A stretch of DNA of 64,000 bases, taken from the NCBI GenBank assembly GCA_026018925.1, contig JAKSZU010000273.1, forward strand, positions 124,001-188,000, in the 5' to 3' direction. Position 1 is the first letter of the stretch. Each line of letters starts with the position of its first letter. A program made the translations under genes and the position numbers. This DNA is from Tupaia tana (taxonomy: Eukaryota; Chordata; Mammalia; Scandentia; Tupaiidae). This document shows, one piece after another, positions 1 through 64,000 of this stretch. The notes under the pieces are model-generated. The model was not told where the DNA came from and did no database searches. It saw nothing but the letters and a program-made list of their open reading frames with translations.

Positions 1-593
1 GTCTCTGAGGTCTCTGTTTCTCTCTGCTCCTGTCTCCTCATATTTTTTGGTAATTTTTCTATTTACGATTTTTTTAAAGGTAGAATTTCTCTCTGGCTCT
101 CAGCTCCATCTTTTGTTTTGTTAGTAAGCCTTCTGCTCCTTTCTCCCAGGCAGGAGAGTTGAGCCATTCTCTGAGAAGATTCCACATGGATACTGGGATC
201 TAGATATTTCAGGGCACAGGCGAAATGAAGATTTTCTACTCATAATTCAGCCTCCAGCAAGCAAAGCTATTGTGGTAGGGAGCCCCTCTGGCCTTCTATC
301 CCTGTCTCTGTGTCTCTGAGGTCTCTGTCTCTCTCTGCTCCGGTCTCCTCATTTTTTTTTGGTAATTTACCCTTTTTACGATTTCTTTAAAGGTAGAATT
401 TCTCTCTGGCTCTCAGTTCCATCTTTTGTTTCGTTAATAGGCCCTTCTGCTCCTTTCTCCCCGGCAGTAGAGTTGAGCCATTCTCTAAGAAGATTCCACA
501 TGGATACTGGGAACTAGATATTTCAGGGCACAGGCGAAATGAAGATTTTCTACTCATAATTAGGCCTCCAGCAAGCAAAGCTAATGTGGTAGG

Positions 594-905
594 GAGCCCC
601 TCTGGCCTTCTATCCCTGTCTCTGTGTCTCTGAGGTCTCTGTCTCTCTCTGCTCCTGTCTCCTCATTATTTTGGTAATTTTTCCTTTTTACGATTTTTTT
701 AAAGGTAGAATTTCTCTCTGGCTCTCAGCTCCATCTCTTGTTTAGTTAATAGGCCCTTCTGCTCCTTTCTCCCATGCAGGAGAGTTGAGCCATTCTCTGA
801 GAAGATTCCACATGGATACTGGGAACTAGATATTTCAGGGCACAGGCGAAATGAAGATTTTCTACTCATAATTCAGCCTCCAGCAAGCAAAGCTAGTGTG
901 GTAGG
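594..905 (+). repeat. Representative class B monomer (312 bp)
   Basis: Class B monomers differ from class A at linked positions: 'tcttgtttagttaatagg' replaces 'ttttgttttgttaataag', and 'cccatgcag' replaces 'cccaggcag'. This copy also has a shortened first T-run ('cattattttgg'), a tag that recurs at 9436, 13508, 24165, 28455, 30652, 36193, 38694, 44235, 49246, 52683, 56440 and 61447. Classes A and B are interspersed rather than strictly alternating. Some units combine the 5' part of one class with the 3' part of the other, which indicates exchange within monomers. Confidence 0.85.
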
Positions 906-1913
906 GAGCCCCTCTGGCCTTCTATCCCTGTCTCTGTGTCTCTGAGGTCTCTGTCTATCTCTGCTCCTGTCTCCTCATTTTTTTTGGTAATTTTTCTTTT
1001 TACGATTTTTTTAAAGGTAGAATTTCTCTCTGGCTCTCAGCTCCATCTTTTGTTTTGTTAATAAGCCCTTCTGCTCCTTTCTCCCAGGCAGCAGAGTTGA
1101 GCCATTCTCTGAGAAGTTTCCACATGGATACTGGGAACTAGATATTTCAGGTCACAGGCGAAATGAAGATTTTCTACTCATAAATCAGCCTCCAGCAAGC
1201 AAAGCTAGTGTGGTAGGGAGCCCCTCTGTCCTTCTATACCTGTCTCTGTGTCCCTGAGGTCTTTGTCTATCTCTGCTCCTGTCTCCTCATTTTTTGGTAA
1301 TTTTTCTTTTTACGATTTTTTTAAAGGCAGAATTTCTCTCTGGCTCTCAGCTCCATCTTTTGTTTTGTTAAAAAGCCCTTCTGCTCCTTTCTCCCATGCA
1401 GGAGAGTTGAGCCATTCTCTGAGTAGATTCCACATGGATACTGGGAACTGGATATTTCAGGGCACAGGCGAAATGAAGATTTTCTACTCATAATTCAGCC
1501 TCCAGCAAGCAAAGCTAGTGTGGTAGGGAGCCCCTCTGGCCTTCTATCCCTGTCTCTGTTTCTCTGAGGTCTCTGTCTCTCTCTGCTCCTGTCTCCTCAT
1601 ATTTTTTTGGTAATTTTTCCTTTTTACGATTTTTTTAAAGGTAGAATTTCTCTCTGGCTCTCAGCTCCATCTCTTGTTTAGTTAATAGGCCCTTCTGCTC
1701 CTTTCTCCCATGCAGGAGAGTTGAGCCATTCTCTGAGAAGTTTCCACATGGATACTGGGAACTAGATATTTCAGGGCACAGGCGAAATGAAGATTTTCTA
1801 CTCATAATTCAGCCTCCAGCAAGCAAAGCTAGTGTGGTAGGGAGCCCCTCTGGCCTTCTATCCCTGTCTCTGTGTCTCTGAGGTCTCTGTCTCTCTCTGC
1901 TCCTGTCTCCTCA

Positions 1914-1949
1914 TTTTTTTTGGTAATTTTTCCTTTTTACGATATTTTT
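1914..1949 (+). other. T-tract cluster (exemplar), possible curved DNA
   Basis: Four T-runs (8, 5, 5 and 5-7 nt) lie within about 36 bp, with consensus centres spaced about 11, 7 and 10 bp. Near-helical phasing of A/T-runs is known to favour intrinsic curvature. The first run varies most between monomers (for example 'atattttttt', 'tttgtttgg', 'ttgttttttgg', 'tattttgg'), consistent with slippage. These variants are useful tags for assigning monomers to HOR positions. Curvature itself is inferred. Confidence 0.4.
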
Positions 1950-1953
1950 AAAG

Positions 1954-2028
1954 GTAGAATTTCTCTCTGACTCTCAGCTCCATCTTTTGTTTTGTTAATA
2001 AGCCCTTCTGCTCCTTTCTCCCAGGCAG
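1954..2028 (+). other. GT...AG mini-intron-like segment present in nearly every monomer (exemplar)
   Basis: The segment begins 'aaag|gtagaa', a fair match to a 5' splice donor. It ends in a long pyrimidine run and 'cccaggcag|g', a strong match to a 3' acceptor, with 'gttaata' as a possible branch site about 30 bases upstream. The distance is 75 bp, and the sequence up to the next donor would be a 238 bp exon. The arrangement repeats in almost every full-length monomer. Class B changes the acceptor to 'catgcag|g', and some units to 'catgtag|g', both still valid AG acceptors. This is resemblance only: no transcript evidence exists in the sequence, and CT-rich DNA often mimics acceptors. Confidence 0.25.
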
Positions 2029-3093
2029 GAGAGTAGAGCCATTCTCTGAGAAGATTCCACATGGATACTGGGAACTACATATTTCAGGGCACAGGCGAAA
2101 TGAAGATTTTCTACTCATAATTCAGCCTCCAGCAAGCAAAGCTAGTGTGGTAGGGAGCCCCTCTGGCCTTCTATCCCTGTCTCTGTGTCTCTGATATCTC
2201 TGTCTCACTGCTCCTGTCTACTCATTATTTTTTGGTAATTTTTCCTTTTTACGATTTTTTTAAAGGTAGAATTTCTCTCTGGCTCTCAGCTCCATCTCTT
2301 GTTTAGTTAATAGGCCCTCCTGCTCCTTTCTCCCATGCAGGAGAGTTGAGCCATTCTCTGAGAAGATTCCACATGAATACTGGGAACTACATATTTCAGG
2401 GCACAGGCGAAATGAAGATTTTCTACTCATAATTCAGCCTCCAGCAAGCAAAGCTAGTGTGGTAGGGAGCCCCTCTGGCCTTCTATCCCTGTCTCTGTGT
2501 CTCTGAGGTCTCTGTCTCTCTCTGCTCCTGTCTCCTCATTTTTTTTGGTAATTTTTCCTTTTTGCGATTTTTTTAAACGTAGAATTTCTCTTTGGCTCTC
2601 AGCTCCATCTTTTGTTTTGTTAATAAGCCCTTCTGCTCCTTTCTCCCAGGCAGGAGAGTAGAGCCATTCTCTGAGAAGATTCCACATGGATACTGGGAAC
2701 TACATATTTCAGGGCACAGGCGAAATGAAGATTTTCTACTCATAATTCAGCCTCCAGCAAGCAAAGCTAGTGTGGTAGGGAGCCACTCTGGCCTTCTATC
2801 CCTGTCTCTGTGTCTCTGAGGTCTCTGTCTCTCTCTGCTCCTGTCTCCTCATATTTTTTTGGTAATTTTTCCTATTTACGATTTTATTAAAGGTAGAATT
2901 TCTCTCTGGCTCTCAGCTCCATCTTTTGTTTTGTTAATAAGCCCTTCTGCTCTTTTCTCCCAGGCAGGAGAGTTGAGCCATTCTCTGAGAAGACTCCACA
3001 TGGATACCGGGATCTAGATATTTCAGGGCACAGGCGAAATGAAGATTTTCTACTCATAATTCAGCCTCCAGCAAGCAAAGCTATTGTGGTATG

Positions 3094-5289
3094 GAGCCCC
3101 TCTGGCCTTCTATCCCTGTCTCTGTGTCTCTGAGGTCTCTGTCTCTCTCTGCTCCTGTCTCCTCATTTGTTTTTTGGTAATTTTTCCATTTTACAATTTT
3201 TTTAAGGTAGAATTTCTCTCTGGCTCTCAACTCCATCTTTTGTTTTGTTAATAAGCCCTTCTGTTCCTTTCTCCCAGGCAGGAGAGTTGAGCCATTCTCT
3301 GAGAAGATTCCACATGGATACTGGGAACTAGATATTTCAGAGCACAGGCGAAATGAAGATTTTCTACTCATAATTCAGCCTCCAGCAAGCAAAGCTAGTG
3401 TGGTTGGGAGCCACTCTGGCCTTCTATCCCTGTCTCTGTGTCTCTGAGGTCTCTGTCTCTCTCTGCTCCTGTCTCCTCATATTTTTTTGGTAATTTTTCC
3501 TATTTACGATTTTTTTAAAGATAGAATTTCTCTCTGGCTCTCAGCTCCATGTTTTGTTTTGTTAATAAGCCATTCTGCTCCTTTCTCCCAGGCAGGAGAG
3601 TTGAGCCGTTGTCTGAGAAGATTCCACATGGATACTGGGATCTAGATATTTCAGGGCACAGGCGAAATGAAGATTTTCTACTCATAATTCAGCCTCCAGC
3701 AAGCAAAGCTAGTGTGGTAGGGAGCCCCTCTGGCCTTCTATCCCTGTCTCTGTGTCTCTGAGGTCTCTGTCTCTCTCTGCTCCTGTCTCCTCATTTTTTT
3801 TTGGTAATTTTTCCTTTTTACGATTTTTTTAAAGGTAGAATTTCTCTCTGGCTCTCAGCTCCATCTCTTGTTTAGTTAATAGGCCCTTCTGCTCCTTTCT
3901 CCCATGCAGGAGAGTTGAGCCATTCTCTGAGAAGTTTCCACATGGATACTGGGAACTAGATATTTCAGGGCACAGGCGAAATGAAGATTTTCTACTCATA
4001 ATTCAGCCTCCAGCAAGCAAAGCTAGTGTGGTAGGGAGCCCCTCTGGCCTTCTATCCCTGTCTCTGTGTCTCTGAGGTCTCTGTCTCTCTCTGCTCCTGT
4101 CTCCTCATTTTTTTTGGTAATTTTTCCTTTTTACGATTTTTTTAAAGGTAGAATTTCTCTCTGACTCTCAGCTCCATCTTTTGTTTTGTTAATAAGCCCT
4201 TCTGCTCCTTTCTCCCAGGCAGGAGAGTAGAGCCATTCTCTGAGAAGATTCCACATGGATACTGGGAACTACATATTTCAGGGCACAGGCGAAATGAAGA
4301 TTTTCTACTCATATTTCAGCCTCCAGGAAGCAAAGCTAGTGTGGTAGGGAGCCCCTCTGGCCTTCTATCCCTGTCTCTGTGTCTCTGATATCTCTGTCTC
4401 TCACTGCTCCTCTCTACTCATTTTTTTTGGTAATTTTTCCTTTTTACGATTTTTTTAGAGGTAGAATTTCTCTCTGGCTCTCAGCTCCATCTCTTGTTTA
4501 GTTAATAGGCCCTCCTGCTCCTTTCTCCCATGCAGGAGAGTTGAGCCATTCTCTGAGAAGATTCCACATGGATACTGGGAACTACATATTTCAGGGCACA
4601 GGCTAAATGAAGATTTTCTACTCATAATTCAGCCTCCAGCAAGCAACGCTAGTGTGGTAGGGAGCCCCTCTGGCCTTCTATCCCTGTCTCTGTGTCTCTG
4701 AGGTCTCTGTCTCTCTCTGCTCCTGTCTCCTCATTTTTTTTTGGTATTTTTTCCTTTTTGCGATTTTTTTAAAGGTAGAATTTCTCTCTGGCTCTCAGCT
4801 CCATCTTTTGTTTTGTTAATAAGCCCTTCTGCTCCTTTCTCCCAGGCAGGAGAGTAGAGCCATTCTCTGAGAAGATTCCACATGGATACTGGGAACTACA
4901 TATTTCAGGGCACAGGCGAAATGAAGATTTTCTACTCATAATTCAGCCTCCAGCAAGCAAAGCTAGTGTGGTAGGGAGCCCCTCTGGCCTTCTATCCCTG
5001 TCTCTGTGTCTCTGAGGTCTCTGTCTCTCTCTGCTCCTGTCTCCTCATATTTTTTTGGTAATTTATCCTATTTACGATTTTATTAAAGGTAGAATTTCTC
5101 TCTGGATCTCAGCTCCATCTTTTGTTTTGTTAATAAGCCCTTCTGCTCTTTTCTCCCAGGCAGGAGAGTTGAGCCATTCTCTGAGAAGACTCCACATGGA
5201 TACTGGGATCTAGATATTTCAGGGCACAGGCGAAATGAAGATTTTCTACTCATAATTCAGCCTCCAGCAAGCAAAGCTATTGTGGTATG
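3094..5289 (+). repeat. Seven-monomer sub-block, offset 2,196 bp
   Basis: The tag monomers 'ttgttttttgg'/'ctcaactcc'/'cagagcac' and 'aaagatag'/'ccatgttttg'/'gccgttgt' occur at 3094-3721 and recur 2,196 bp later at 5290-5917. Five further monomers, including the 'ctgatatc' and 'ttttgcgat' types, lie between them. The same subtypes recur in the adjacent 10-monomer block, so this is a shortened neighbour of that block. Confidence 0.75.
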
Positions 5290-8200
5290 GAGCCCCTCTG
5301 GCCTTCTATCCCTGTCTCTGTGTCTCTGAGGTCTCTGTCTCTCTCTGCTCCTGTCTCCTCATTTGTTTTTTGGTAATTTTTCCATTTTAAAATTTTTTTA
5401 AGGTAGAATTTCTCTCTGGCTCTCAACTCCATCTTTTGTTTTGTTAATAAGCCCTTCTGTTCCTTTCTCCCAGGCAGGAGAGTTGAGCCATTCTCTGAGA
5501 AGATTCCACATGGATACTGGGAACTAGATATTTCAGAGCACAGGCGAAATGAAGATTTTCTACTCATAATTCAGCCTCCAGCAAGCAAAGCTAGTGTGGT
5601 TGGGAGCCACTCTGGCCTTCTATCCCTGTCTCTGTGTCTCTGAGGTCTCTGTCTCTCTCTGCTCCTGTCTCCTCATATTTTTTTGGTAATTTTTCCTATT
5701 TACGATTTTTTTAAAGATAGAATTTCTCTCTGGCTCTCAGCTCCATGTTTTGTTTTGTTAATAAGCCCTTCTGCTCCTTTCTCCCAGGCAGGAGAGTTGA
5801 GCCGTTGTCTGAGAAGTTTCCACATGGATACTGGGATCTAGATATTTCAGGGCACAGGCGAAATGAAGATTTTCTACTCATAATTCAGCCTCCAGCAAGC
5901 AAAGCTAGTGTGGTAGGGAGCCCCTCTGGCCTTCTATCCCTGTCTCTGTGTCTCTGAGGTCTCTGTCTCTCTCTGCTCCTGTCTCCTCATTTTTTTTGGT
6001 AATTTTTCCTTTTTACGATTTTTTTAAAGGTAGAATTTCTCTCTGGCTCTCAGCTCCATCTTTTGTTTTGTTAATAAGCCCTTCTGCTCCTTTCTCCCAG
6101 GCAGCAGAGTTGAGCCATTCTCTGAGAAGATTCCACATGTACACTGGGAACTAGATATTTCAGGGCACAGGCGAAATGAAGATATTCTACTCATAATTCA
6201 GCCTCCAGCAAGCAAAGCTAGTATGGTTGGGAGCCCCTCTGGCCTTCTATCCCTGTCTCTCTGTCTCTGAGGTCTCTGTCTCTCTCTGCTCCTGTCTCCT
6301 CATTTTTTTTGGAAATTTTTCCTTTTTACGATTCTTTTAAAGGTAGAATTTCTCTCTGGCTCTCAGCTCCATCTTTTGTTTTGTTAATAAGCCCTTCTGC
6401 TCCTTTCTCCCATGTAGGAGAGTTGAGCCATTCTCTGAGAAGTTTCCACATGGATACTGGGATCTAGATATTTCAGGTCACAGGCGAAATGAAGATTTTC
6501 TACTCATAATTCAGCCTCCAGCAAGCATAGCTAGTGTGGTAGGGAGCCCCTCTGGCCTTCTATACCTGTCTCTGTGTCCCTGAGGTCTTTGTCTCTCTCT
6601 GCTCCTGTCTCCTCATTTTTTTTGGTAATTTTTCTTTTTACGATTTTTTTAAAGGCAGAATTTCTCTCTGGCTCTCAGCTCCATCTTTTGTTTTGTTAAT
6701 AAGCCCTTCTGCTCCTTTCTCCCATGCAGGAGAGTTGAGCCATTCTCTGAGTAGATTCCACATGGATACTGGGAACTGGATATTTCAGGGCACAGGCGAA
6801 ATGAAGATTTTCTACTCATAATTCAGCCTCCAGCAAGCAAAGCTAGTGTGGTAGGGAGCCCCTCTGGCCTTCTATCCCTGTCTCTGTTTCTCTGAGGTCT
6901 CTGTCTCTCTCTGCTCCTCTCTCCTCATTTTTTTTGGTAATTTTTCCTTTTTACGATTTTTTTTAAAGGTAGAATTTCTCTCTGGCTCTCAGCTCCATCT
7001 CTTGTTTAGTTAATAGGCCCTTCTGCTCCTTTCTCCCATGCAGGAGAGTTGAGCCATTCTCTGAGAAGTTTCCACATGGATACTGGGAACTAGATATTTC
7101 AGGGCACAGGCGAAATGAAGATTTTCTACTCATAATTCAGCCTCCAGCAAGCAAAGCTAGTGTGGTAGGGAGCCCCTCTGGCCTTCTATCCCTGTCTCTG
7201 TGTCTCTGAGGTCTCTGTCTCTCTCTGCTCCTGTCTCCTCATTTTTTTTGGTAATTTTTCCTTTTTACGATTTTTTTAAAGGTAGAATTTCTCTCTGACT
7301 CTCAGCTCCATCTTTTGTTTTGTTAATAAGCCCTTCTGCTCCTTTCTCCCAGGCAGGAGAGTAGAGCCATTCTCTGAGAAGATTCCACATGGATACTGGG
7401 AACTACATATTTCAGGGCACAGGCGAAATGAAGATTTTCTACTCATATTTCAGCCTCCAGGAAGCAAAGCTAGTGTGGTAGGGAGCCCCTCTGGCCTTCT
7501 ATCCCTGTCTCTGTGTCTCTGATATCTCTGTCTCTCACTGCTCCTGTCTACTCATTTTTTTTTGGTAATTTTTCCTTTTTACGATTTTTTTAAAGGTAGA
7601 ATTTCTCTCTGGCTCTCAGCTCCATCTCTTGTTTAGTTAATAGGCCCTCCTGCTCCTTTCTCCCATGCAGGAGAGTTGAGCCATTCTCTGAGAAGATTCC
7701 ACATGGATACTGGGAACTACATATTTCAGGGCACAGGCGAAATGAAGATTTTCTACTCATAATTCAGCCTCCAGCAAGCAAAGCTAGTGTGGTAGGGAGC
7801 CCCTCTGGCCTTCTATCCCTGTCTCTGTGTCTCTGAGGTCTCTGTCTCTCTCTGCTCCTGTCTCCTCATTTTTTTTGGTAATTTTTCCTTTTTGCGATTT
7901 TTTTAAAGGTAGAATTTCTCTCTGGCTCTCAGCTCCATCTTTTGTTTTGTTAATAAGCCCTTCTGCTCCTTTCTCCCAGGCAGGAGAGTAGAGCCATTCT
8001 CTGAGAAGATTCCACATGGATACTGGGAACTACATATTTCAGGGCACAGGCGAAATGAAGATTTTCTACTCATAATTCAGCCTCCAGCAAGCAAAGCTAG
8101 TGTGGTAGGGAGCCCCTCTGGCCTTCTATCCCTGTCTCTGTGTCTCTGAGGTCTCTGTCTCTCTCTGCTCCTGTCTCCTCATATTTTTTTGGTAATTTAT

Positions 8201-8423
8201 CCTATTTACGATTTTATTAAAGGTAGAATTTCTCTCTGGATCTCAGCTCCATCTTTTGTTTTGTTAATAAGCCCTTCTGCTCTTTTCTCCCAGGCAGGAG
8301 AGTTGAGCCATTCTCTGAGAAGACTCCACATGGATACTGGGATCTAGATATTTCAGGGCACAGGCGAAATGAAGATTTTCTACTCATAATTCAGCCTCCA
8401 GCAAGCAAAGCTATTGTGGTATG
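5290..8423 (+). repeat. Ten-monomer sub-HOR (3,134 bp), first copy
   Basis: Ten distinguishable subtypes run in order from the 'ttgttttttgg' monomer to the 'cctatttacgattttatt'/'agactcc'/'gatct' monomer. The opening subtypes restart at 8424, 3,134 bp on, before the array diverts at 9052. The block begins where the previous unit ends in 'attgtggtatgg'. Confidence 0.8.
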
Positions 8424-11400
8424 GAGCCCCTCTGGCCTTCTATCCCTGTCTCTGTGTCTCTGAGGTCTCTGTCTCTCTCTGCTCCTGTCTCCTCATTTGT
8501 TTTTTGGTAATTTTTCCATTTTACAATTTTTTTAATGTAGAATTTCTCTCTGGCTCTCAACTCCATCTTTTGTTTTGTTAATAAGCCCTTCTGTTCCTTT
8601 CTCCCAGGCAGGAGAGTTGAGCCATTCTCTGAGAAGACTCCACATGGATACTGGGAACTAGATATTTCAGAGCACAGGCGAAATGAAGATTTTCTACTCA
8701 TAATTCAGCCTCCAGCAAGCAAAGCTAGTGTGGTTGGGAGCCACTCTGGCCTTCTATCCCTGTCTCTGTGTCTCTGAGGTCTCTGTCTCTCTCTGCTCCT
8801 GTCTCCTCTTATTTTTTTGGTAATTTTTCCTATTTACGATTTTTTTAAAGATAGAATTTCTCTCTGGCTCTCAGCTCCATGTTTTGTTTTGTTAATAAGC
8901 CCTTCTGCTCCTTTCTCCCAGGCAGGAGAGTTGAGCCGTTGTCTGAGAAGATTCCACATGGATACTGGGATCTAGATATTTCAGGGCACAGGCGAAATGA
9001 AGATTTTCTACTCATAATTCAGCCTCCAGCAAGCAAAGATAGTGTGGTAGGGAGCCCCTCTGGCCTTCTATCCCTGTCTCTGTGTCTCTGAGGTCTCTGT
9101 CTCTCTCTGCTCCTGTCTCCTCATTTTTTTTGGTAATTTACCCTTTTTACGATTTTTTTAAAGGTAGAATTTCTCTCTGGCTCTCAGCTCCATCTTTTGT
9201 TTCGTTAATAGGCCCTTCTGCTCCTTTCTCCCAGGCAGGAGAGTTGAGCCATTCTCTGAGAAGATTCCACATGGATACTGAGAACTAGATATTTCAGGGC
9301 ACAGGCGAAATGAAGATTTTCTACTCATAATTCAGCCTCCAGCAAGCAAAGCTAATGTGGTAGGGAGCCCCTCTGGCCTTCTATCCCTGTCTCTGTGTCT
9401 CTGAGGTCTCTGTCTCTCTCTGCTCCTGTCTCCTCATTATTTTGGTAATTTTTCCTTTTTACGATTTTTTTAAAGGTAGAATTTCTCTCTGGCTCTCAGC
9501 TCCATCTTTTGTTTTGTTAATAAGCCCTTCTGCTCCTTTCTCCCAGGCAGGAGAGTTGAGCCATTCTCTGAGAAGATTCCACATGGATACTTGGAACAAG
9601 ATATTTCAGGGCATAGGTGAAATGAAGATTTTCTACTCATAATTCAGCCTCCAGCGAGCAAAGCTAGTGTGGTAGGGAGCCCCTCTGGCCTTCTATCCCT
9701 GTCTCTGTCTCTCTGAGGTCTCTGTCGCTCTCTGCTCCTGTCTCCTCATTTTTTTTTGGTAATTTTTCCTTTTTATGATTTTTTTAAAGGTAGAATTTCT
9801 CTCTGGCTCACAGCTCCATCTTTTTTTTGTTAATAAGCACTTCTGCTCCTTTCTTCCAGGCAGGAGAGTTGAGCCATTCTCTGAGAAGTTTCCACATGGA
9901 TACTGGGAACTAGATATGTCAGGGCACAGGCTAAATGAAGATTTTCTACTCATAATTCAGCCTCCAGCAAGCAAAGCTAGTGTGGTAGGGAGCCCCTCTG
10001 GCCTTCTATTCCTGTCTCTGTTTCTCTGAGGTCTCTGTCTCTCTGTGCTCCTTTCTCCTAAATTTTTTTGGTAATTTTTCCTTTTTATGATTTTTTTAAA
10101 GGTAGAATGTCTCTCTGGCTCTCAGCTCCATCTTTTGTTTTGTTAATAAGCCCTTCTGCTCCTTTCTCCCTGGCAGGAGATTTGAGCCATTCTCTGAGAA
10201 GATTCCACATGGATACTGGGAACTAGCTATTTCAGGGCACAGGCCAAATGAAGATTTTCTACTCATAATTCAGCCTCCAGCAAGCAAAGCTAGTGTGGTA
10301 GGGAGCCCCTCTGGCCTTCTATCCCTGTCTCTGTGTCTCTGAGGTCTCTGTCTCTCTCTACTCCTGTCTCCTCATTTTTTTTTGGTAATTTTTCCTTTTT
10401 ACAATTATTTTAAAGGTGGAATTTCTCTCTGGCTCTCAGCTCCATCTTTTGTTTTGTTAATAAGCCCTTCTGCTCCTTTCTCCCAGGCAGGAGAGTTGAG
10501 CCATTCTCTGAGAAGATTCCACATGGACACTGGGAACAAGATGTTTCAGGGCACAGGCGAAATGAAGATTTTCTACTCATAATTCAGCCTCCAGCAAGCA
10601 AAGCTAGTGTGGTAGGGAGCCCCTCTGGCCTTCTATTCCTGTCTCTGTCTCTCTGAGGTCTCTGTCGCTCTCTGCTCCTGTCTCCTCATATTTTTTTGGT
10701 AATTTTTCCTTTTTACAATTATTTTAAAGGTGGAATTTCTCTCTGGCTCTCAGCTCCATCTTTTGTTTTGTTAATAAGCCCTTCTGCTCCTTTCTCCCAG
10801 GCAGGAGAGTTGAGCCATTCTCTGAGAAGATTCCACATGGATACTGGGAACTAGATATTTCAGGGCACAGGCGAAATGAAGATTTTCTACTCATAATTCA
10901 GCATCCAGCAAGCAATGCTAGTGTGGTAGGGAGCCCCTCTGGCCTTCTATCCCTGTCTCTGTGTCTCTGAGGTCTCTGTCTCTCTCTGATCCTGTCTCCT
11001 CATTTTTTTTGGTAACTTTTCCTTTTTACGATTTTTTTAAAGGCAGAATTACTCTCTGGCTCTCAGCTCCATCTTTTGTTTTGTTAATAAGCCCTTCTGC
11101 TCCTTTCTCCCATGCAGGAGAGTTGAGCCATTCTCTGAGAAGATTCCACATGGATACTGGGAACTAGATATTTCAGGGCACAGGCGAAATGAAGATTTTC
11201 TACTCATAATTCAGCCTCCAGCAAGCAAAGCTTGTGTGGTAGGGAGCCCCTCTGGCCTTCTATCCCTGTCTCTGTGTCTCTGAGGTCTCTGTCTCTCTCT
11301 GCTCCTGTCTCCTCATATTTTTTTGGTAATTTTTCCTTTTTACGATTTTTTTAAAGGTAGAATTTCTCTCTGGTTCTCAGCTCCATCTCTTGTTTAGTTA

Positions 11401-17400: not shown

Positions 17401-17508
17401 TGAGAAGACTCCACATGGATACTGGGATCTAGATATTTCAGGGCACAGGCGAAATGAAGATTTTCTACTCATAATTCAGCCTCCAGCAAGCAAAGCTATT
17501 GTGGTATG

Positions 17509-26100: not shown

Positions 26101-26281
26101 TCAGCTCTATCTTTTGTTTTGTTAATAAGCCTTTCTGCTCCTTTCTCCCATGTAGGAGAGTTGAGCCATTCTCTGAGAAGTTTCCACATGGATACTGGGA
26201 ACTAGATATTTCAGGGCACAGGCGAAATGAAGATTTTCTACTCATAATTCAGCCTCCAGCAAGCAAAGCTAGTGTGGTAGG

Positions 26282-47503: not shown

Positions 47504-47604
47504 TTTCCACATGGATACTGGGAACTAGATATTTCAGGTCACAGGCGAAATGAAGATTTTCTACTCATAATTCAGCCTCCAGGAAGCAAAGCTAGTGTGG
47601 TAGG
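47291..47604 (+). repeat. Hybrid monomer at the 5 kb duplication junction
   Basis: The 5' part ('cctatttacgattttatt', 'tgctctttt') matches the monomer at about 52314. The 3' part ('agtttcc', 'aactagat', 'caggtcac', 'tccagg') matches the monomer ending at 42595. The switch falls in or just before 'ctctgagaag' at 47494-47503, so this is the breakpoint of the 5 kb tandem duplication. Confidence 0.85.
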
Positions 47605-53999: not shown

Positions 54000-54171
54000 T
54001 CTTTTGTTTTGTTAATAAGCCCTTCTGCTCCTTTCTCCCATGCAGGAGAGTTGAGCCATTCTCTGAGTAGATTCCACATGGATACTGGGAACTAGATATT
54101 TCAGGGCACAGGCGAAATGAAGATTTTCTACTCATAATTCAGCCTCCAGCAAGCAAAGCTAGTGTGGTAGG
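53860..54171 (+). repeat. Hybrid monomer at the 13-monomer HOR left edge
   Basis: The 5' part ('ctctctgtctctg', 'catatttttgg', 'tatgattctttt') matches the monomer near 57605. The 3' part ('catgcagg', 'gagtaga') matches the one after it, near 57917. The switch lies between about 53972 and 54043. Confidence 0.75.
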
Positions 54172-57100
54172 GAGCCCCTCTGGCCTTCTATCCCTGTCTC
54201 TGTTTCTCTGAGGTCTCTGTCTCTCTCTGCTCCTGTCTCCTCATTTTTTTTTGGTAATTTTTCCTTTTTACGATTTTTTTAAAGGTAGAATTTCTCTCTG
54301 GCTCTCAGCTCCATCTCTTGTTTAGTTAATAGGCCCTTCTGCTCCTTTCTCCCATGCAGGAGAGTTGAGCCATTCTCTGAGAAGATTCCACATGGATACT
54401 GGGAACTAGATATTTCAGGGCACAGGCGAAATGAAGATTTTCTACTCATAATTCAGCCTCCAGCAAGCAAAGCTAGTGTGGTAGGGAGCCCCTCTGGCCT
54501 TCTATCCCTGTCTCTGTGTCTCTGAGGTCTCTTTATCTCTCTGCTCCTGTCTCCTCATTTTTTTTGGTAATTTTTCCTTTTTACGATTTTTTTAAAGGTA
54601 GAATTTCTCTCTGGCTCTCAGCTCCATCTTTTGTTTTGTTAATAAGCCCTTCTGCTCCTTTCTCCCAGGCAGGAGAGTTGAGCGATTCTCTGAGAAGATT
54701 TCACATGGACACTGGGAACTAGATATTTCAGGGCACAGGCGAAATGAAGATTTTCTACTCATAATTCAGCCTCCAGCAAGCAAAGCTAGTGTGGTAGGGA
54801 GCCCCTCTGGCCTTCTATCCCTGTCTTTCTGTCTCTGAGGTCTCTGTCTCTCTCTGCTCCTGTCTCCTCATTTTTTTTGGTAATTTACCCTTTTTACGAT
54901 TTCTTTAAAGGTAGAATTTCTCTCTTGCTCTCACCTCCATCTCTTGTTTAGTTAATAGGCCCTTCTGCTCATTTCTCCCATGCAGGAGAGTTGAGCCATT
55001 CTCTGAGAAGTATCCACATGGATACTGGGAACTAGATATTTCAGGTCACAGGCGAAATGAAGATTTTCTAATCATAATTCAGCCTCCAGCAAGCAAAGCT
55101 AGTGTGGTAGGGAGCCCCTCTGGCCTTCTATCCCTGTCTCTGTGTCTCTGAGGTCTCTGTCTCTCTCTGCTCCTGTCTCCCCTTTTTTTTTTGGTAATTT
55201 TTCCTTTTTACGATTTTTTTAAAGGTAGAATTTCTCTCTGACTCTCAGCTCCATCTTTTGTTTTGTTAATAAGGCCTTCTGCTCCTTTCTCCCAGGCAGG
55301 AGAGTAGAGCCATTCTCTGAGAAGGTTCCACATGGATACTGGGAACTACATATTTCAGGGCACAGGCGAAATGAAGATTTTCTACTCATAATTCAGCCTC
55401 CAGGAAGCAAAGCTAGTGTGGTAGGGAGCCCCTCTGGCCTTCTATCCCTGTCTCTGTGTCTCTGATATCTCTGTCTCTCACTGCTCCTGTCTACTCCTTT
55501 TTTTTTGGTAATTTTTCCTTTTTACGATTTTTTTAAAGGTAGAATTTCTCTCTGGCTCTCAGCTCTATCTCTTGTTTAGTTAATAGGCCCTCCTGCTCCT
55601 TTCTCCCATGCAGGAGAGTTGAGCCATTCTCTGAGAAGATTCCACATGGATACTGGGAACTACATATTTCAGGGCACAGGCGAAATGAAGATTTTCTACT
55701 CATAATTCAGCCTCCAACAAGCAAAGCTAGTGTGGTAGGGAGCCCCTCTGGCCTTCTATCCCTGTCTCTGTGTCTCTGAGGTCTCTGTCTCTCTCTGCTA
55801 CTGTCTCCTCATTTTTTTTGGTAATTTTTCCTTTTTGCGATTTTTTTAAAGGTAGAATTTCTCTCTGGCTCTCATCTCCATCTTTTGTTTTGTTAATAAG
55901 CCCTTCTGCTCCTTTCTCCCAGGCAGGAGAGTAGAGCCATTCTCTGAGAAGATTCCACATGGATACTGGGAACTACATATTTCAGGGCACAGGCGAAATG
56001 AAGATTTTTCTACTCATAATTCAGCCTCCAGCAAGCAAAGCTAGTGTAGTAGGGAGCCCCTCTGGCCTTCTATCCCTGTCTCTGTGTCTCTGAGGTCTCT
56101 GTCTCTCTCTGCTCCTGTCTCCTCATATTTTTTTGGTAATTTTTCCTATTTACGATTTTATTAAAGGTAGAATTTCTCTCTGGCTCTCAGCTCCATCTTT
56201 TGTTTTGTTAATAAGCCCTTCTGCTCTTTTCTCCCAGGCAGGAGAGTTGAGCCATTCTCTGAGAAGACTCCACATGGATACTGGGATCTAGATATTTCAG
56301 GGCACAGGCGAAATGAAGATTTTCTACTCATAATTCAGCCTCCAGCAAGCAAAGCTATTGTGGTATGGAGCCCCTCTGGCCTTCTATCCCTGTCTCTGTG
56401 TCTCTGAGGTCTCTGTCTCTCTCTGCTCCTGTCTCCTCATTATTTTGGTAATTTTTCCTTTTTACGATTTTTAAAGGTAGAATTTCTCTCTGGCTCTCAG
56501 CTCCATCTTTTGTTTTGTTAATAAGCCCTTCTGCTCCTTTCTCCCATGTAGGAGAGTTGAGGCATTCTCTGAGAAGATTCCACATGGATACTGGGAAATA
56601 GATATTTCAGGGCACAGGCGAAATGAAGATTTTCTACTCATAATTCAGCCTCCAGCAAGCAAAGCTAGTGTGGTAGGGAGCCCCTCTGGCCTTCTATCCC
56701 TGTCTCTGTGTCTCTGAGGTCTTTGTCTCTCTCTGCTCCTGTCTCCTCATTTTTTTTGGTAATTTTTCTTTTTACGATTTTTTTAAAGGCAGAATTTCTC
56801 TCTGGCTCTCAGCTCCATCTTTTGTTTTGTTAATAAGCCCTTCTGCTCCTTTCTCCCATGCAGGAGAGTTGAGCCATTCTATGAGTAGATTCCACATGGA
56901 TACTGGGAACTAGCTATTTCAGGGCACAGGCGAAATGAAGATTTTCTACTCATAATTCAGCCTCCAGCGAGCAAAGCTAGTGTGGTAGGGAGCCCCTCTG
57001 GCCTTCTATCCCTGTCTCTGTGTCTCTGAGGTCTTTGCCTCTCTCTGCTCCTGTCTCCTCATAATTTTTTTGGTAATTTTTACTTTTTACGATTTTTTGA

Positions 57101-58065
57101 AAGGTAGAATTTCTCTCTGGCACTCAGCTCCATCTTTTGTTTTGTTAATAAGCCCTTCTGCTCCTTTCTCCCAGGCAGGAGAGTTGAGCCGTCCTCTGAG
57201 AAGATTCCACATGGATACTGGGAACTAGATATTTCAGGGCACAGGCGAAATGAAGATTTTCTACTCATAATTCAGCCTCCAGCAAGCAAACTAGAGTGGT
57301 AGGGAGCCCCTCTGGTCTTCTATCCCTGTCTCTGTGTCTCTGAGGTCTCTGTCTCTCTCTGCTCCTGTCTCCACATTTTTTGGTAATTTTTCCTTTTTAC
57401 GATTTTTTTAAAGGTAGAATTTCTCTCTGGCTCTCAGCTCCATCTTTTGTTTTGTTAATAAGCCCTTCTGCTCCTTTCTCCCAGGCAGCAGAGTTGAGCC
57501 ATTCTCTGAGAAGATTCCACATGGACACTGGGAACTAGATATTTCAGGGCACAGGCGAAATGAAGATTTTCTACTCGTAATTCAGCCTCCAGCAAGCAAA
57601 GCTAGTGTGGTAGGGAGCCCCTCTGGCCTTCTATCCCTGTCTCTCTGTCTCTGAGGTCTCTGTCTCTCTCTGCTCCTGCCTCCTCATATTTTTGGTAATT
57701 TTTCCTTTTTATGATTCTTTTAAAGGTAGAATTTCTCTCTGGCTCTCAGCTCCATCTTTTGTTTTGTTAATAAGCCCTTCTGCTCCTTTCTCCCATGTAG
57801 GAGAGTTGAGCCATTCTCTGAGAAGATTCCACATGGATACTGGGAACTAGATATTTCAGGGCACAGGCGAAATGAAGATTTTCTACTCATAATTCAGCCT
57901 CCAGCAAGCAAAGCTAGTGTGGTAGGGAGCCCCTCTGGCCTTCTAACCCTGTCTCTGTGTCTCTGAGGTCTTTGTCTCTCTCTGCTCCTGTCTCCTCATT
58001 TTTTTTGGTAATTTTTCTTTTTACGATTTTTTAAAGGCAGAATTTCTCTCTGGCTCTCAGCTCCA
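54000..58065 (+). repeat. 13-monomer HOR (~4,066 bp), copy 1
   Basis: Tags repeat at an offset of 4,066 bp: 'ctctttatctc'/'gagcgatt', 'tctcttgctctcacctcc', 'ctccccttttttttt'/'aaggcctt'/'agaaggttcc', 'ctactccttttttttt'/'ccaacaagc', and 'tgctactg'/'ttttgcgat'/'gtgtagtagg'. The second part (56156-58065) contains the 'gaggcatt'/'gaaatagat', 'ctagctat'/'gcgagc' and 'cataattttttt'/'gccgtcctct' monomers. The left boundary falls in a hybrid monomer. Confidence 0.8.
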
Positions 58066-60221
58066 TCTTTTGTTTTGTTAATAAGCCCTTCTGCTCCTTT
58101 CTCCCATGCAGGAGAGTTGAGCCATTCTCTGAGTAGATTCCACATGGATACTGGGAACTAGATATTTCAGGGCACAGGCGAAATGAAGAATTTCTACTCA
58201 TAATTCAGCCTCCAGCAAGCAAAGCTAGTGTGGTAGGGAGCCCCTCTGGCCTTCTATCCCTGTCTCTGTTTCTCTGAGGTCTCTGTCTCTCTCTGCTCCT
58301 GTCTCCTCATTTTTTTTTGGTAATTTTTCCTTTTTACGATTTTTTTAAAGGTAGAATTTCTCTCTGGCTCTCAGCTCCATCTCTTGTTTAGTTAATAGGC
58401 CCTTCTGCTCCTTTCTCCCATGCAGGAGAGTTGAGCCATTCTCTGAGAAGATTCCACATGGATACTGGGAACTAGATATTTCAGGGCACAGGCGAAATGA
58501 AGATTTTCTACTCATAATTCAGCCTCCAGCAAGCAAAGCTAGTGTGGTAGGGAGCCCCTCTGGCCTTCTATCCCTGTCTCTGTGTCTCTGAGGTCTCTTT
58601 ATCTCTCTGCTCCTGTCTCCTCATTTTTTTTGGTAATTTTTCCTTTTTACGATTTTTTTAAAGGTAGAATTTCTCTCTGGCTCTCAGCTCCATCTTTTGT
58701 TTTGTTAATAAGCCCTTCTGCTCCTTTCTCCCAGGCAGCAGAGTTGAGCGATTCTCTGAGAAGATTCCACATGGACACTGGGAACTAGATATTTCAGGGC
58801 ACAGGCGAAATGAAGATTTTCTACTCATAATTCAGCCTCCAGCAAGCAAAGCTAGTGTGGTAGGGAGCCCCTCTGGCCTTCTATCCCTGTCTTTCTGTCT
58901 CTGAGGTCTCTGTCTCTCTCTGCTCCTGTCTCCTCATTTTTTTTTGGTAATTTACCCTTTTTACGATTTTTTTAAAGGTAGAATTTCTCTCTTGCTCTCA
59001 CCTCCATCTCTTGTTTAGTTAATAGGCCCTTCTGCTCCTTTCTCCCATGCAGGAGAGTTGAGCCATTCTCTGAGAAGTTTCCACATGGATACTGGGAACT
59101 AGATATTTCAGGTCACAGGCGAAATGAAGATTTTCTACTCATAATTCAGCCTCCAGCAAGCAAAGCTAGTGTGGTAGGGAGCCCCTCTGGCCTTCTATCC
59201 CTGTCTCTGTGTCTCTGAGGTCTCTGTCTCTCTCTGCTCCTGTCTCCCCTTTTTTTTTGGTAATTTTTCCTTTTTACGATATTTTTAAAGGTAGAATTTC
59301 TCTCTGACTCTCAGCTCCATCTTTTGTTTTGTTAATAAGGCCTTCTGCTCCTTTCTCCCAGGCAGGAGAGTAGAGCCATTCTCTGAGAAGGTTCCACATG
59401 GATACTGGGAACTACATATTTCAGGGCACAGGCGAAATGAAGATTTTCTACTCATAATTCAGCCTCCAGGAAGCAAAGCTAGTGTGGTAGGGAGCCCCTC
59501 TGGCCTTCTATCCCTGTCTCTGTGTCTCTGATATCTCTGTCTCTCACTGCTCCTGTCTACTCCTTTTTTTTTGGTAATTTTTCCTTTTTACGATTTTTTT
59601 AAAGGTAGAATTTCTCTCTGGCTCTCAGCTCCATCTCTTGTTTAGTTAATAGGCCCTCCTGCTCCTTTCTCCCATGCAGGAGAGTTGAGCCATTCTCTGA
59701 GAAGATTCCACATGGATACTGGGAACTACATATTTCAGGGCACAGGCGAAATGAAGATTTTCTACTCATAATTCAGCCTCCAACAAGCAAAGCTAGTGTG
59801 GTAGGGAGCCCCTCTGGCCTTCTATCCCTGTCTCTGTGTCTCTGAGGTCTCTGTCTCTCTCTGCTACTGTCTCCTCATTTTTTTTGGTAATTTTTCCTTT
59901 TTGCGATTTTTTTAAAGGTAGAATTTCTCTCTGGCTCTCAGCTCCATCTTTTGTTTTGTTAATAAGCCCTTCTGCTCCTTTCTCCCAGGCAGGAGAGTAG
60001 AGCCATTCTCTGAGAAGATTCCACATGGATACTGGGAACTACATATTTCAGGGCACAGGCGAAATGAAGATTTTTCTACTCATAATTCAGCCTCCAGCAA
60101 GCAAAGCTAGTGTAGTAGGGAGCCCCTCTGGCCTTCTATCCCTGTCTCTGTGACTCTGAGGTCTCTGTCTCTCTCTGCTCCTGTCTCCTCATATTTTTTT
60201 GGTAATTTTTCCTATTTACGA
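58066..60221 (+). repeat. 13-monomer HOR, partial copy 2
   Basis: This matches 54000-56155 in order. One difference is 'gcagcag' here (58735) against 'gcaggag' at 54670; another is 'agtttcc' against 'agtatcc' in the following monomer. The match stops near 60222, where the sequence switches from the 'cctatttacg' monomer to a 'gcagaat'/'ctatgagtaga' monomer normally found two units later. Confidence 0.8.
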
Positions 60222-60433
60222 TTTTTTTAAAGGCAGAATTTCTCTCTGGCTCTCAGCTCCATCTTTTGTTTTGTTAATAAGCCCTTCTGCTCCTTTCTCC
60301 CATGCAGGAGAGTTGAGCCATTCTATGAGTAGATTCCACATGGATACTGGGAACTAGCTATTTCAGGGCACAGGCGAAATGAAGATTTTCTACTCATAAT
60401 TCAGCCTCCAGCGAGCAAAGCTAGTGTGGTAGG
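60120..60433 (+). repeat. Hybrid monomer ending 13-monomer copy 2
   Basis: The 5' part ('catattttttt', 'cctatttacg') matches 56054. The 3' part ('gcagaat', 'ctatgagtaga', 'ctagctat', 'gcgagc') matches the monomer at about 56677. The switch is near 60222, and two monomer lengths are skipped. Confidence 0.8.
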
Positions 60434-60748
60434 GAGCCCCTCTGGCCTTCTATCCCTGTCTCTGTGTCTCTGAGGTCTTTGCCTCTCTCTGCTCCTGTCT
60501 CCTCATAATTTTTTTGGTAATTTTTACTTTTTACGATTTTTTGAAAGGTAGAATTTCTCTCTGGCACTCAGCTCCATCTTTTGTTTTGTTAATAAGCCCT
60601 TCTGCTCCTTTCTCCCAGGCAGGAGAGTTGAGCCGTCCTCTGAGAAGATTCCACATGGATACTGGGAACTAGATATTTCAGGGCACAGGCGAAATGAAGA
60701 TTTTCTACTCATAATTCAGCCTCCAGCAAGCAACGCTAGTGTGGTAGG

Positions 60749-62315
60749 GAGCCCCTCTGGCCTTCTATCCCTGTCTCTGTGTCTCTGATGTCTCTGTCTT
60801 TCTCTGCTCCTGTCTCCTCATTTTTTTTTGTAATTTTTCCTTTTTACGATTTTTTTAAAGGTAGAATTTCTCTCTGGCTCTCAGCTCCATCTTTTGTTTT
60901 GTTAATAAGCCCTTCTGCTCCTTTCTCCCAGGCAGGAGAGTAGAGCCATTCTCTGAGAAGATTCCACATGGATACTGGGAACTACATATTTCAGGGCACA
61001 GGCGAAATGAAGATTTTTCTACTCATAATTCAGCCTCCAGCAAGCAAAGCTAGTGTAGTAGGGAGCCCCTCTGGCCTTCTATCCCTGTCTCTGTGTCTCT
61101 GAGGTCTCTGTCTCTCTCTGCTCCTGTCTCCTCATATTTTTTTGGTAATTTTTCCTATTTACGATTTTATTAAAGGTAGAATTTCTCTCTGGCTCTCAGC
61201 TCCATCTTTTGTTTTGTTAATAAGCCCTTCTGCTCTTTTCTCCCAGGCAGGAGAGTTGAGCCATTCTCTGAGAAGACTCCACATGGATACTGGGATCTAG
61301 ATATTTCAGGGCACAGGCGAAATGAAGATTTTCTACTCATAATTCAGCCTCCAGCAAGCAAAGCTATTGTGGTATGGAGCCCCTCTGGCCTTCTATCCCT
61401 GTCTCTGTGTCTCTGAGGTCTCTGTCTCTCTCTGCTCCTGTCTCCTCATTATTTTGGTAATTTTTCCTTTTTACGATTTTTTTAAAGGTAGAATTTCTCT
61501 CTGGCTCTCAGCTCCATCTTTTGTTTTGTTAATAAGCCCTTCTGCTCCTTTCTCCCATGTAGGAGAGTTGAGGCATTCTCTGAGAAGATTCCACATGGAT
61601 ACTGGGAAATAGATATTTCAGGGCACAGGCGAAATGAAGATTTTCTACTCATAATTCAGCCTCCAGCAAGCAAAGCTAGTGTGGTAGGGAGCCCCTCTGG
61701 CCTTCTATCCCTGTCTCTGTGTCTCTGAGGTCTTTGTCTCTCTCTGCTCCTGTCTCCTCATTTTTTTTGGTAATTTTTCTTTTTACGATTTTTTTAAAGG
61801 CAGAATTTCTCTCTGGCTCTCAGCTCCATCTTTTGTTTTGTTAATAAGCCCTTCTGCTCCTTTCTCCCATGCAGGAGAGTTGAGCCATTCTATGAGTAGA
61901 TTCCACATGGATACTGGGAACTAGCTATTTCAGGGCACAGGCGAAATGAAGATTTTCTACTCATAATTCAGCCTCCAGCGAGCAAAGCTAGTGTGGTAGG
62001 GAGCCCCTCTGGCCTTCTATCCCTGTCTCTGTGTCTCTGAGGTCTTTGCCTCTCTCTGCTCCTGTCTCCTCATAATTTTTTTGGTAATTTTTACTTTTTA
62101 CGATTTTTTGAAAGGTAGAATTTCTCTCTGGCACTCAGCTCCATCTTTTGTTTTGTTAATAAGCCCTTCTGCTCCTTTCTCCCAGGCAGGAGAGTTGAGC
62201 CGTCCTCTGAGAAGATTCCACATGGATACTGGGAACTAGATATTTCAGGGCACAGGCGAAATGAAGATTTTCTACTCATAATTCAGCCTCCAGCAAGCAA
62301 CGCTAGTGTGGTAGG
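60749..62315 (+). repeat. Five-monomer unit (1,567 bp) with preceding partial copy
   Basis: The 'cataattttttt'/'ttttacttttt'/'tttgaaagg'/'gccgtcctct' monomer occurs at 56990, 60434 and 62001, and the last two are 1,567 bp apart. Both end in 'gcaacgctagtg', while the first ends in 'gcaaactagagtgg'. The monomers at 61063-62000 also match 56054-56989 at an offset of 5,009 bp. Sequence 60222-60748 repeats as 61789-62315. Confidence 0.75.
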
Positions 62316-62939
62316 GAGCCCCTCTGGCCTTCTATCCCTGTCTCTGTGTCTCTGATATCTCTGTCTCTCACTGCTCCTGTCTACTCATTTTTTTTTGGTA
62401 ATTTTTCCTTTTTACGATTTTTTTAAAGGTAGAATTTCTCTCTGGCTCTCAGCTCCATCTCTTGTTTAGTTAATAGGCCCTTCTGCTCCTTTCTCCCATG
62501 CAGGAGAGTTGAGCCATTCTCTGAGAAGATTCCACATGGATACTGGGAACTAGATATTTCAGGGCACAGGCGAAATGAAGATTTTCTACTCATAATTCAG
62601 CCTCCAGCAAGCAAACTAGAGTGGTAGGGAGCCCCTCTGGCCTTCTATCCCTGTCTCTGTGTCTCTGAGGTCTCTGTCTCTCTCTGCTCCTGTCTCCACA
62701 TTTTTTGGTAATTTTTCCTTTTTACGATTTTTTTGAAGGTAGAATTTCTCTCTGGCTCTCAGCTCCATCTTTTGTTTTGTTAATAAGCCCTTCTGCTCCT
62801 TTCTCCCAGGCAGCAGAGTTGAGCCATTCTCTGAGAAGATTCCACATGGACACTGGGAACTAGATATTTCAGGGCACAGGCGAAATGAAGATTTTCTACT
62901 CGTAATTCAGCCTCCAGCAAGCAAAGCTAGTGTGGTAGG
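62316..62939 (+). repeat. Two linking monomers at the right end
   Basis: The first has a 'ctgatatc'/'ctactcat' 5' part and class B middle, and ends 'gcaaactagagtgg', a combination seen nowhere else. It is a probable hybrid. The second is the 'ctccacattttttgg'/'gcagcag'/'ctcgtaattc' type also seen at 57304-57615, with 'ttttgaagg' replacing 'tttaaagg'. Confidence 0.65.
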
Positions 62940-64000
62940 GAGCCCCTCTGGCCTTCTATCCCTGTCTTTCTGTCTCTGAGGTCTCTGTCTCTCTCTGCTC
63001 CTGTCTCCTCATTTTTTTTTGGTAATTTACCCTTTTTACGATTTTTTTAAAGGTAGAATTTCTCTCTTGCTCTCACCTCCATCTCTTGTTTAGTTAATAG
63101 GCCCTTCTGCTCCTTTCTCCCATGCAGGAGAGTTGAGCCATTCTCTGAGAAGTTTCCACATGGATACTGGGAACTAGATATTTCAGGTCACAGGCGAAAT
63201 GAAGATTTTCTACTCATAATTCAGCCTCCAGCAAGCAAAGCTAGTGTGGTAGGGAGCCCCTCTGGCCTTCTATCCCTGTCTCTGTGTCTCTGAGGTCTCT
63301 GTCTCTCTCTGCTCCTGTCTCCCCTTTTTTTTTTGGTAATTTTTCCTTTTTACGATTTTTTTAAATGTAGAATTTCTCTCTGACTCTCAGCTCCATCTTT
63401 TGTTTTGTTAATAAGGCCTTCTGCTCCTTTCTCCCAGGCAGGAGAGTAGAGCCATTCTCTGAGAAGGTTCCACATGGATACTGGGAACTACATATTTCAG
63501 GGCACAGGCGAAATGAAGATTTTCTACTCATAATTCAGCCTCCAGGAAGCAAAGCTAGTGTGGTAGGGAGCCCCTCTGGCCTTCTATCCCTGTCTCTGTG
63601 TCTCTGATATCTCTGTCTCTCACTGCTCCTGTCTACTCCTTTTTTTTTGGTAATTTTTCCTTTTTACGATTTTTTTAAAGGTAGAATTTCTCTCTGGCTC
63701 TCAGCTCCATCTCTTGTTTAGTTAATAGGCCCTCCTGCTCCTTTCTCCCATGCAGGAGAGTTGAGCCATTCTCTGAGAAGATTCCACATGGATACTGGGA
63801 ACTACATATTTCAGGGCACAGGCGAAATGAAGATTTTCTACTCATAATTCAGCCTCCAACAAGCAAAGCTAGTGTGGTAGGGAGCCCCTCTGGCCTTCTA
63901 TCCCTGTCTCTGTGTCTCTGAGGTCTCTGTCTCTCTCTGCTACTGTCTCCTCATTTTTTTTGGTAATTTTTCATTTTTGCGATTTTTTTAAAGGTAGAAT
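62940..64000 (+). repeat. Third partial copy of the 13-monomer HOR
   Basis: The order 'ctttctgtctctg'/'tctcttgctctcacctcc', 'ctcccctttt'/'aaggcctt'/'agaaggttcc', 'ctactcctttt'/'ccaacaagc' and 'tgctactg'/'ttttgcgat' repeats 58865-59925. The offset is about 4,075 bp. The last monomer, starting 63882, is cut by the window end, so this copy probably continues. Confidence 0.75.

What the first reader, a model, noticed from the sequence alone, without database searches (positions are those of the whole stretch)
1..64000. Higher-order repeat period shifts stepwise along one satellite array
Ordered subtype tags show different HOR periods in adjacent stretches: about 12.84 kb and 3.13 kb (left), 8.045 kb (centre), 5.01 kb, then 4.07 kb and 1.57 kb (right). 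Many satellites have one dominant HOR over long distances. Here each new unit re-uses the end of the previous one, which gives a readable order of local amplifications.
Basis: seen in the sequence. Interest (0 to 1): 0.85.

Follow-up and report, generated by a model that had tools for sequence, protein, structure and literature searches.

The report
Satellite array with patchwork local duplications
This is a stretch of a mammal's abundant satellite DNA in which blocks of several repeat units were copied side by side at different times, so the distance between look-alike copies changes from place to place; this is the expected outcome of ordinary local duplication and not a new kind of structure.

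Summary
The window is one head-to-tail satellite of about 313 bp: 204 monomers, part of an all-satellite 248.5-kb contig (C390, 793 monomers). A 1567-bp period on the right is not supported. These are not higher-order-repeat arrays: the best lag pairs 33 of 178 monomers, no run reaches three full copies, and full tandem runs mostly have length equal to lag (26/26 here; 5/5, 6/6, 9/9, 14/14, 31/31 elsewhere or at the right edge), the mark of single in-register tandem duplications. Ages do not run left to right: right-hand 4.07-kb blocks (0.47%) are older than the central 8.05-kb (0.22%) and 5.0-kb (0.065%) blocks. One step is ordered: 8.05 kb first, then 5.0 kb overlapping its end. A neutral model of random tandem duplication and deletion matches 14 of 17 statistics (16 with mild conversion), and 88.5% of 540 simulated windows also change main period in every third. 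A 91-bp-deleted monomer, 21 exact junctions in the genome, all in three contigs, is a useful lineage marker.

The parts
1..64000 (+). Unbroken head-to-tail satellite array, 204 whole monomers of ~313 bp
29313..37358 (+). Copy 1 of the 26-monomer (8.05 kb) tandem duplication
   Evidence: lag 26, run 26 of 26, 18 differences in 8060 core sites
37359..45401 (+). Copy 2 of the 26-monomer tandem duplication, directly adjoining copy 1
42588..47281 (+). Copy 1 of the 16-monomer (5.0 kb) tandem duplication; begins inside copy 2 of the 8.05-kb unit
   Evidence: 15 whole monomers plus partial ones, base-level length 16.09 monomers, 3 differences in 4650
47596..52288 (+). Copy 2 of the 16-monomer tandem duplication
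1519..3712 (+). 7-monomer block repeated directly after itself (3713-5908); older, 3.1 differences per monomer
   Evidence: lag 7, contig monomers 400-406
3713..5908 (+). 7-monomer block repeated 3134 bp on (6847-9042)
   Evidence: lag 10
17501..20633 (+). 10-monomer (3.13 kb) block repeated directly after itself (20634-23768); older, 30 differences in 3100, 10 of them in one monomer
271..3085 (+). Block repeated 12.84 kb on (13114-15933), interrupted by one more divergent monomer; continues left of the window
   Evidence: lag 41
4653..10607 (+). Block repeated 14.73 kb on (19379-25334), interrupted by one more divergent monomer
   Evidence: lag 47
25958..27747 (+). Six-monomer block with the 222-bp monomer; repeated at 32126-33916 (lag 20, 6168 bp) and 40169-41959 (lag 46 = 20+26)
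26273..26494 (+). Truncated monomer (222 bp), copy 1
32441..32662 (+). Truncated monomer, copy 2, identical to copy 1
40484..40705 (+). Truncated monomer, copy 3, identical to copy 1
54163..56044 (+). Six-monomer block repeated 4066 bp on (58229-60110)
58856..61053 (+). Seven-monomer block repeated 4075 bp on (from 62931, past the window end)
56045..57295 (+). Four-monomer block repeated 5009 bp on (61054-62306)

Best explanation
Part of an abundant satellite of a mammal. SHOWN in the sequence: the array carries in-register tandem duplications of blocks of 5 to 31 monomers (1.6 to 9.7 kb), each usually leaving two adjacent copies, plus shorter remnants, and block boundaries show no preferred place in the monomer. 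INFERRED: the array began as nearly identical monomers; the events are unequal exchange between sister chromatids or break-induced replication re-entering behind the fork, balanced by deletions and neutral in effect, with some short-tract exchange (gene conversion) on top. The 'stepwise period' is the visible result of overlapping, independent two-copy duplications at different sites and times.
For: Run length equals lag in 6 of 7 full tandem runs of the contig: 5, 6, 9, 14, 26, 31 (the seventh is 10 at lag 6); at base level 8 of 193 segments match their lag to within 0.6 monomer. Lags add as insertion of a duplicated block predicts: 26+16=42, 20+26=46, 125+31=156; conversion alone would not shift lags. 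Breakpoints are spread over the monomer (87 left ends p = 0.71, 84 right ends p = 0.13). Near-star history: mean distance to consensus 8.57 and mean pairwise difference 15.99 of 310, the three short monomers left out. Near-identical pairs are about 3% at lags 5-29 and fall to 0.03% at lags of 600 or more. Neutral tandem duplication/deletion model (2297 of 3600 planned simulations ran): the best 15 of 1149 without conversion have a mean duplication of 19 monomers and their 10-90% ranges hold 14 of 17 statistics. 478 of 540 windows (88.5%) simulated from these fits have different main lags in their three thirds.
Against: Without conversion three statistics fall outside the 10-90% range: runs of >=10 monomers (19-40; observed 16), tandem runs (7.4-16.8; observed 7), exact tandem runs (7.4-16.2; observed 6). 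With conversion these fit, but near-identical pairs at lags 1-4 are then too frequent (0.85-2.03%; observed 0.63%). In window-sized simulations the number of tandem runs (observed 1) sits at the 5% point (median 3). These fits were selected for likeness, so they show sufficiency, not proof. Same-type neighbours of the truncated monomer differ 1.7-3.1 per 221 sites between contigs while the marker differs 0.48, so block duplication alone does not explain its spread. Three segments run over two copies, up to about 2.9 (lag 5, 9.46 monomers). No reads were available, so copy order rests on the assembly.
Confidence: 0.85

Rival explanations
1. A true higher-order-repeat array whose unit length was changed stepwise along the array by successive amplification waves moving left to right.
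For: Monomer-type order is shared between neighbouring stretches; the 16-monomer duplication overlaps the end of the older 26-monomer one.
Against: Best lag pairs 18.5% of monomers, no three full copies; age order is not left to right; overlap 9 right, 6 left; the neutral model gives the same look.
Confidence: 0.07
2. Copies are spread mainly by gene conversion (short-tract copying), not by duplication.
For: The marker is more uniform than its same-type neighbours; adding conversion brings the numbers of long and tandem runs into range.
Against: Exact run = lag tandem pairs and additive lags need insertions that change copy number; the best 15 of 1148 fits with conversion have only 0.28-0.68 (10-90%) conversion events per duplication/deletion attempt, near the low end of the range tried, 0.2-10. 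A model with conversion alone was not run.
Confidence: 0.05
3. Assembly artefact: repeated or misordered read paths in an unplaced contig.
For: The whole 248.5-kb contig is satellite; one 5-monomer pair outside the window has 0 differences.
Against: Copies in the window carry private differences and a spread of ages, 3/4650 to 30/3100; similar ordered monomer types and the same truncated monomer recur in two other contigs with different spacing, though these are from the same assembly.
Confidence: 0.03

Closest known systems
Smith (1976) unequal-crossover model of tandem repeats and its break-induced-replication variant, as reviewed in PMC8997354 (passages read; Smith 1976 itself not read)
   Same: In-register duplications and deletions of homologous repeats create local, shifting higher-order periods; neutral
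   Different: A model, not a sequence; here sizes and relative ages of single events can be read from one mammalian array
Local HORs and homogenization in Arabidopsis telomere-adjacent arrays (PMC11406999, passages read); local HORs of Arabidopsis centromeres (recalled)
   Same: Short-range duplicated blocks of several monomers, local homogenization
   Different: About 7-bp telomeric units (178-bp centromeric ones, recalled) against a 313-bp mammalian monomer
Human alpha-satellite HORs and cascading HORs (PMC11050224 and PMC11062924, passages read)
   Same: Tandem monomers; multi-monomer units; new variants arising locally
   Different: Human units are repeated many times (for example 429 copies of a 15mer) with 20-40% divergence between monomers of a unit; here two copies, about 5% between monomers

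Membership tests
Higher-order-repeat (HOR) array | A multi-monomer unit repeated in tandem many times | tested here: not met
   No run >= 2 x lag at 5 thresholds, window and contig; nearest 2.8-2.9 copies, outside the window
Higher-order-repeat (HOR) array | Most monomers near-identical at one period | tested here: not met
   33 of 178 at best (18.5%); synthetic HOR 89%
Higher-order-repeat (HOR) array | Monomers one unit apart much more alike than adjacent ones | tested here: inconclusive
   True only inside individual duplicated blocks
Satellite shaped by unequal exchange (Smith type) | In-register tandem duplications with run length equal to lag | tested here: met
   6 of 7 full tandem runs exactly equal at threshold 4; 8 base-level cases of 193 segments
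Satellite shaped by unequal exchange (Smith type) | Similarity decays with distance along the array | tested here: met
   Near-identical pairs about 3% at lags 5-29, 0.03% at 600 or more; but only 0.63% at lags 1-4
Satellite shaped by unequal exchange (Smith type) | No preferred breakpoint | tested here: met
   p = 0.71 (87 left ends) and 0.13 (84 right ends)
Satellite shaped by unequal exchange (Smith type) | Reciprocal exchange between sister chromatids rather than break-induced replication | not testable with these tools
   Both leave the same two-copy duplication
Centromeric satellite | CENP-A occupancy / kinetochore | not testable with these tools
   No chromatin data; only one interior block on a 199-Mb sequence was probed
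Centromeric satellite | CENP-B box (17-bp motif recalled, not from a call) | tested here: not met
   No match to all 9 core positions in the window; best has 2 mismatches, 1 site. Not a required feature: many mammalian centromeric satellites lack it (recalled)

The most novel reading that the evidence does not exclude
A mammal's abundant satellite keeps no HOR at all in this array and went through one burst followed by slow, size-limited local duplication, with a unique deletion monomer (21 copies, three contigs) whose flanks are older than itself, so that it spreads by short exchange separately from block duplication; the array would be a natural recorder from which duplication and conversion rates could be read separately.
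Probability: 0.25. Interest if true: 0.5.

Novelty: new member of a known kind. Interest (0 to 1): 0.3.

Why it matters
It turns an impression ('HOR period shifts') into countable events: sizes, relative ages and breakpoints of single tandem duplications in a mammalian satellite. Such data can constrain the long-argued balance between unequal exchange, break-induced replication and gene conversion, and they warn that local period peaks in a dot-plot do not by themselves show a higher-order repeat or a directional wave.

Tried and rejected
Rejected: a dominant HOR; a left-to-right amplification wave; a breakpoint hotspot; a dimeric origin of the monomer (best match between the consensus halves 15 bp, apart from the overlap built into the test); a CENP-B box.

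Ungapped base-by-base offsets broke at homopolymer length differences, so all later work was on aligned monomers, with columns more than 5% gapped (mostly the T-runs) left out. A scan for older duplications used an approximate score; above about 9 differences per pair it mostly lists the low-divergence patch at monomers 299-379 and rows holding a short monomer, and these were not used.

Species identification failed. The mitochondrial contig C1198 gives COX1 and ND2; the closest solved ND2 chains (5gpn, 486.9 bits; 5ldw, 464.6) are mammalian complex I (species of these entries recalled), so 'mammal' is safe and 'placental' is my recalled reading of the sequence; the order is open. Literature searches for a ~313-bp mammalian satellite (listings only) gave nothing relevant; the lemur centromere preprint PMC13228423 (passages) has no word beginning 313 or 314 in its main text. 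The search for other copies of the 8.05-kb unit did not complete.
Full report
WHAT IT IS. The window is bases 124001-188000 of contig C390 (248,514 bp) in a 2.95-Gb genome of 1198 contigs. The whole contig is one satellite: 794 anchor sites on the + strand, none on the other, spacing 306-320 bp except three of 222 bp, all three in the window. 793 monomers were aligned; mean pairwise identity is 94.65% over 310 well-filled columns. An exact 35-base piece of the monomer occurs 63,564 + 63,857 times in the genome and 458 times in C390 (793 monomers), which suggests some 220,000 monomers or about 69 Mb (a rough extrapolation from one contig). On one chromosome-scale sequence (C420, 199 Mb) 4 of 11 probes, at 131.60, 131.65, 131.72 and 131.76 Mb, are satellite, and those at 131.50 and 131.85 Mb and beyond are not. 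The mitochondrial contig gives COX1 and ND2 closest to mammalian chains; the species is unresolved.

THE OBSERVATION. Near-identical means <=4 differences in 310 columns. Runs of >=3 consecutive near-identical pairs at a constant lag: 37 in the window and 134 in the contig, with 0 in each of 5 shuffles of the contig and 0-3 in 200 shuffles of the window. The 1567-bp offset on the right is not: of 5 pairs at lag 5, one is on the right and four at 14.4-15.6 kb.

NOT HIGHER-ORDER REPEATS. The best lag in the window (26) pairs 33 of 178 monomers; over the contig the best lag pairs 6.1%. A synthetic 12-mer HOR gives 89%. No run reaches twice its lag at any of five thresholds; the nearest, 2.8-2.9 copies, lie outside the window. 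Instead, run length equals lag in 6 of 7 full tandem runs at threshold 4: 5, 6, 9, 14, 26, 31 (the 14-monomer one starts at the right edge of the window), and at base level in 8 of 193 segments to within 0.6 monomer. That is what one in-register tandem duplication leaves. Older two-copy duplications of 7 and 10 monomers lie on the left (1519-5908 and 17501-23768). The other runs are shorter than their lag; I read them as remnants cut by later events.

ORDER OF EVENTS. Divergence between copies: left blocks (lags 41, 47, 10; six blocks, one reaching left of the window) 98/15810 = 0.62%; 6.17 kb 11/1860 = 0.59%; 8.05 kb 18/8060 = 0.22%; 5.0 kb 3/4650 = 0.065%; 4.07 kb (two blocks) 19/4030 = 0.47%; right-hand 5.0 kb 3/1240 = 0.24%; 14 monomers at the right edge 4/4340 = 0.09%. 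The right 4.07-kb blocks are older than the centre (p = 0.023 and 1.5e-4) and not distinguishable from the left (p = 0.30). In the centre the order is 26-monomer, then 16-monomer (p = 0.040): the shared nine monomers differ by 9 at lag 26, 2 at lag 16 and 9 at lag 42. These Fisher tests treat sites and blocks as independent, several left blocks overlap, most blocks were chosen by a limit of 4 differences per monomer, and conversion is ignored, so the p-values are rough. Over the contig (42 runs of >=5 monomers), younger runs overlap the right end of older ones 9 times and the left end 6 times: no clear direction.

MECHANISM. Lags add as insertion of a block predicts (26+16=42, 20+26=46, 125+31=156). 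Breakpoints spread over the monomer as expected. Monomers are nearly a star: mean distance to consensus 8.57, pairwise 15.99. Simulations start from identical monomers and apply random tandem duplications and deletions plus point mutation; after 14 trial runs, 2297 of 3600 planned ran before the time limit. The best 15 of 1149 without conversion have a mean duplication of 19 monomers (10-90%: 15-31). Their 10-90% ranges hold 14 of the 17 summary statistics; runs of >=10 monomers (observed 16, range 19-40), tandem runs (7; 7.4-16.8) and exact tandem runs (6; 7.4-16.2) fall outside. The best 15 of 1148 with conversion hold 16 of 17; the miss is lags 1-4 (0.63% observed, 0.85-2.03%). Of 540 simulated 204-monomer windows (180 simulations from the 15 fits without conversion), 88.5% have three different main lags in their thirds; 33%, 36% and 38% reach the observed numbers of runs, distinct lags and longest run; tandem runs are low in the real window (1; median 3, 5-95% 1-6). 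The fits assume a star start; other starts were not tried beyond letting time run to 30 units.

A NATURAL MARKER. The three 222-bp monomers of the window lack 91 bp, with a 3-base match at the junction by eye, and are identical. Their exact junction occurs 21 times in the genome, all on one strand, in three contigs: C345 7, C377 11, C390 3. The pieces of C345 and C377 that I read share short ordered runs of monomers with C390, whereas the 31 monomers of a 10-kb piece of C420 share no run. Ten of the 18 markers in C345 and C377 form five pairs 1786-1788 bp apart (five full monomers and the short one), a spacing that C390 lacks. 16 of the 21 were read in context. Markers differ by 0.48-0.54 per 221 sites; neighbours at -1, +1, +2 and +3 of the matching type (12, 13, 13 and 11 of 16; the others left out) by 0.75-2.2 within and 1.7-3.1 between contigs. 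This suggests exchange close to the marker, but numbers are small.

KNOWN OR NEW. [quoted passage not shown] passages read) and resembles local homogenization and HOR formation in Arabidopsis telomere-adjacent arrays (PMC11406999; passages). It lacks the many-copy units of human HORs (PMC11050224, PMC11062924; passages). Three searches aimed at this satellite listed nothing relevant; they cover open-access papers only and none searched by sequence. Verdict: real observation, ordinary mechanism, useful marker.

Noticed in passing
window 26273-26494, 32441-32662, 40484-40705; G000 C345, C377, C390: A 91-bp-deleted monomer whose exact junction is found 21 times in the genome, only in three contigs and on one strand: probably a single-origin lineage marker.
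   Followed up: partly
C390 monomers 299-379 (about 94-119 kb of the contig, left of the window): A patch whose monomers differ by about 10-12 of 310 at many lags up to 40, against about 16 over the contig: a younger or more homogenized stretch.
   Followed up: no
C390 195-11474 and 49069-60343; 14619-20892 and 62854-69130: Large near-identical segments at lags of 154-156 monomers (about 48 kb), compatible with one very large tandem duplication cut by the contig start.
   Followed up: partly
L029 (C420:131685001-131695000): The satellite on a 199-Mb sequence seems to have its own pair of blocks 5328 bp (17 monomers) apart (matching series of scores; not aligned directly) and no runs shared with C390.
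   Followed up: no
G000 C531:156655777-156657117: A second COX1 match with the same score as the mitochondrial contig, inside a long sequence (position 156.7 Mb): a recent nuclear copy of mitochondrial DNA or an assembly join.
   Followed up: no
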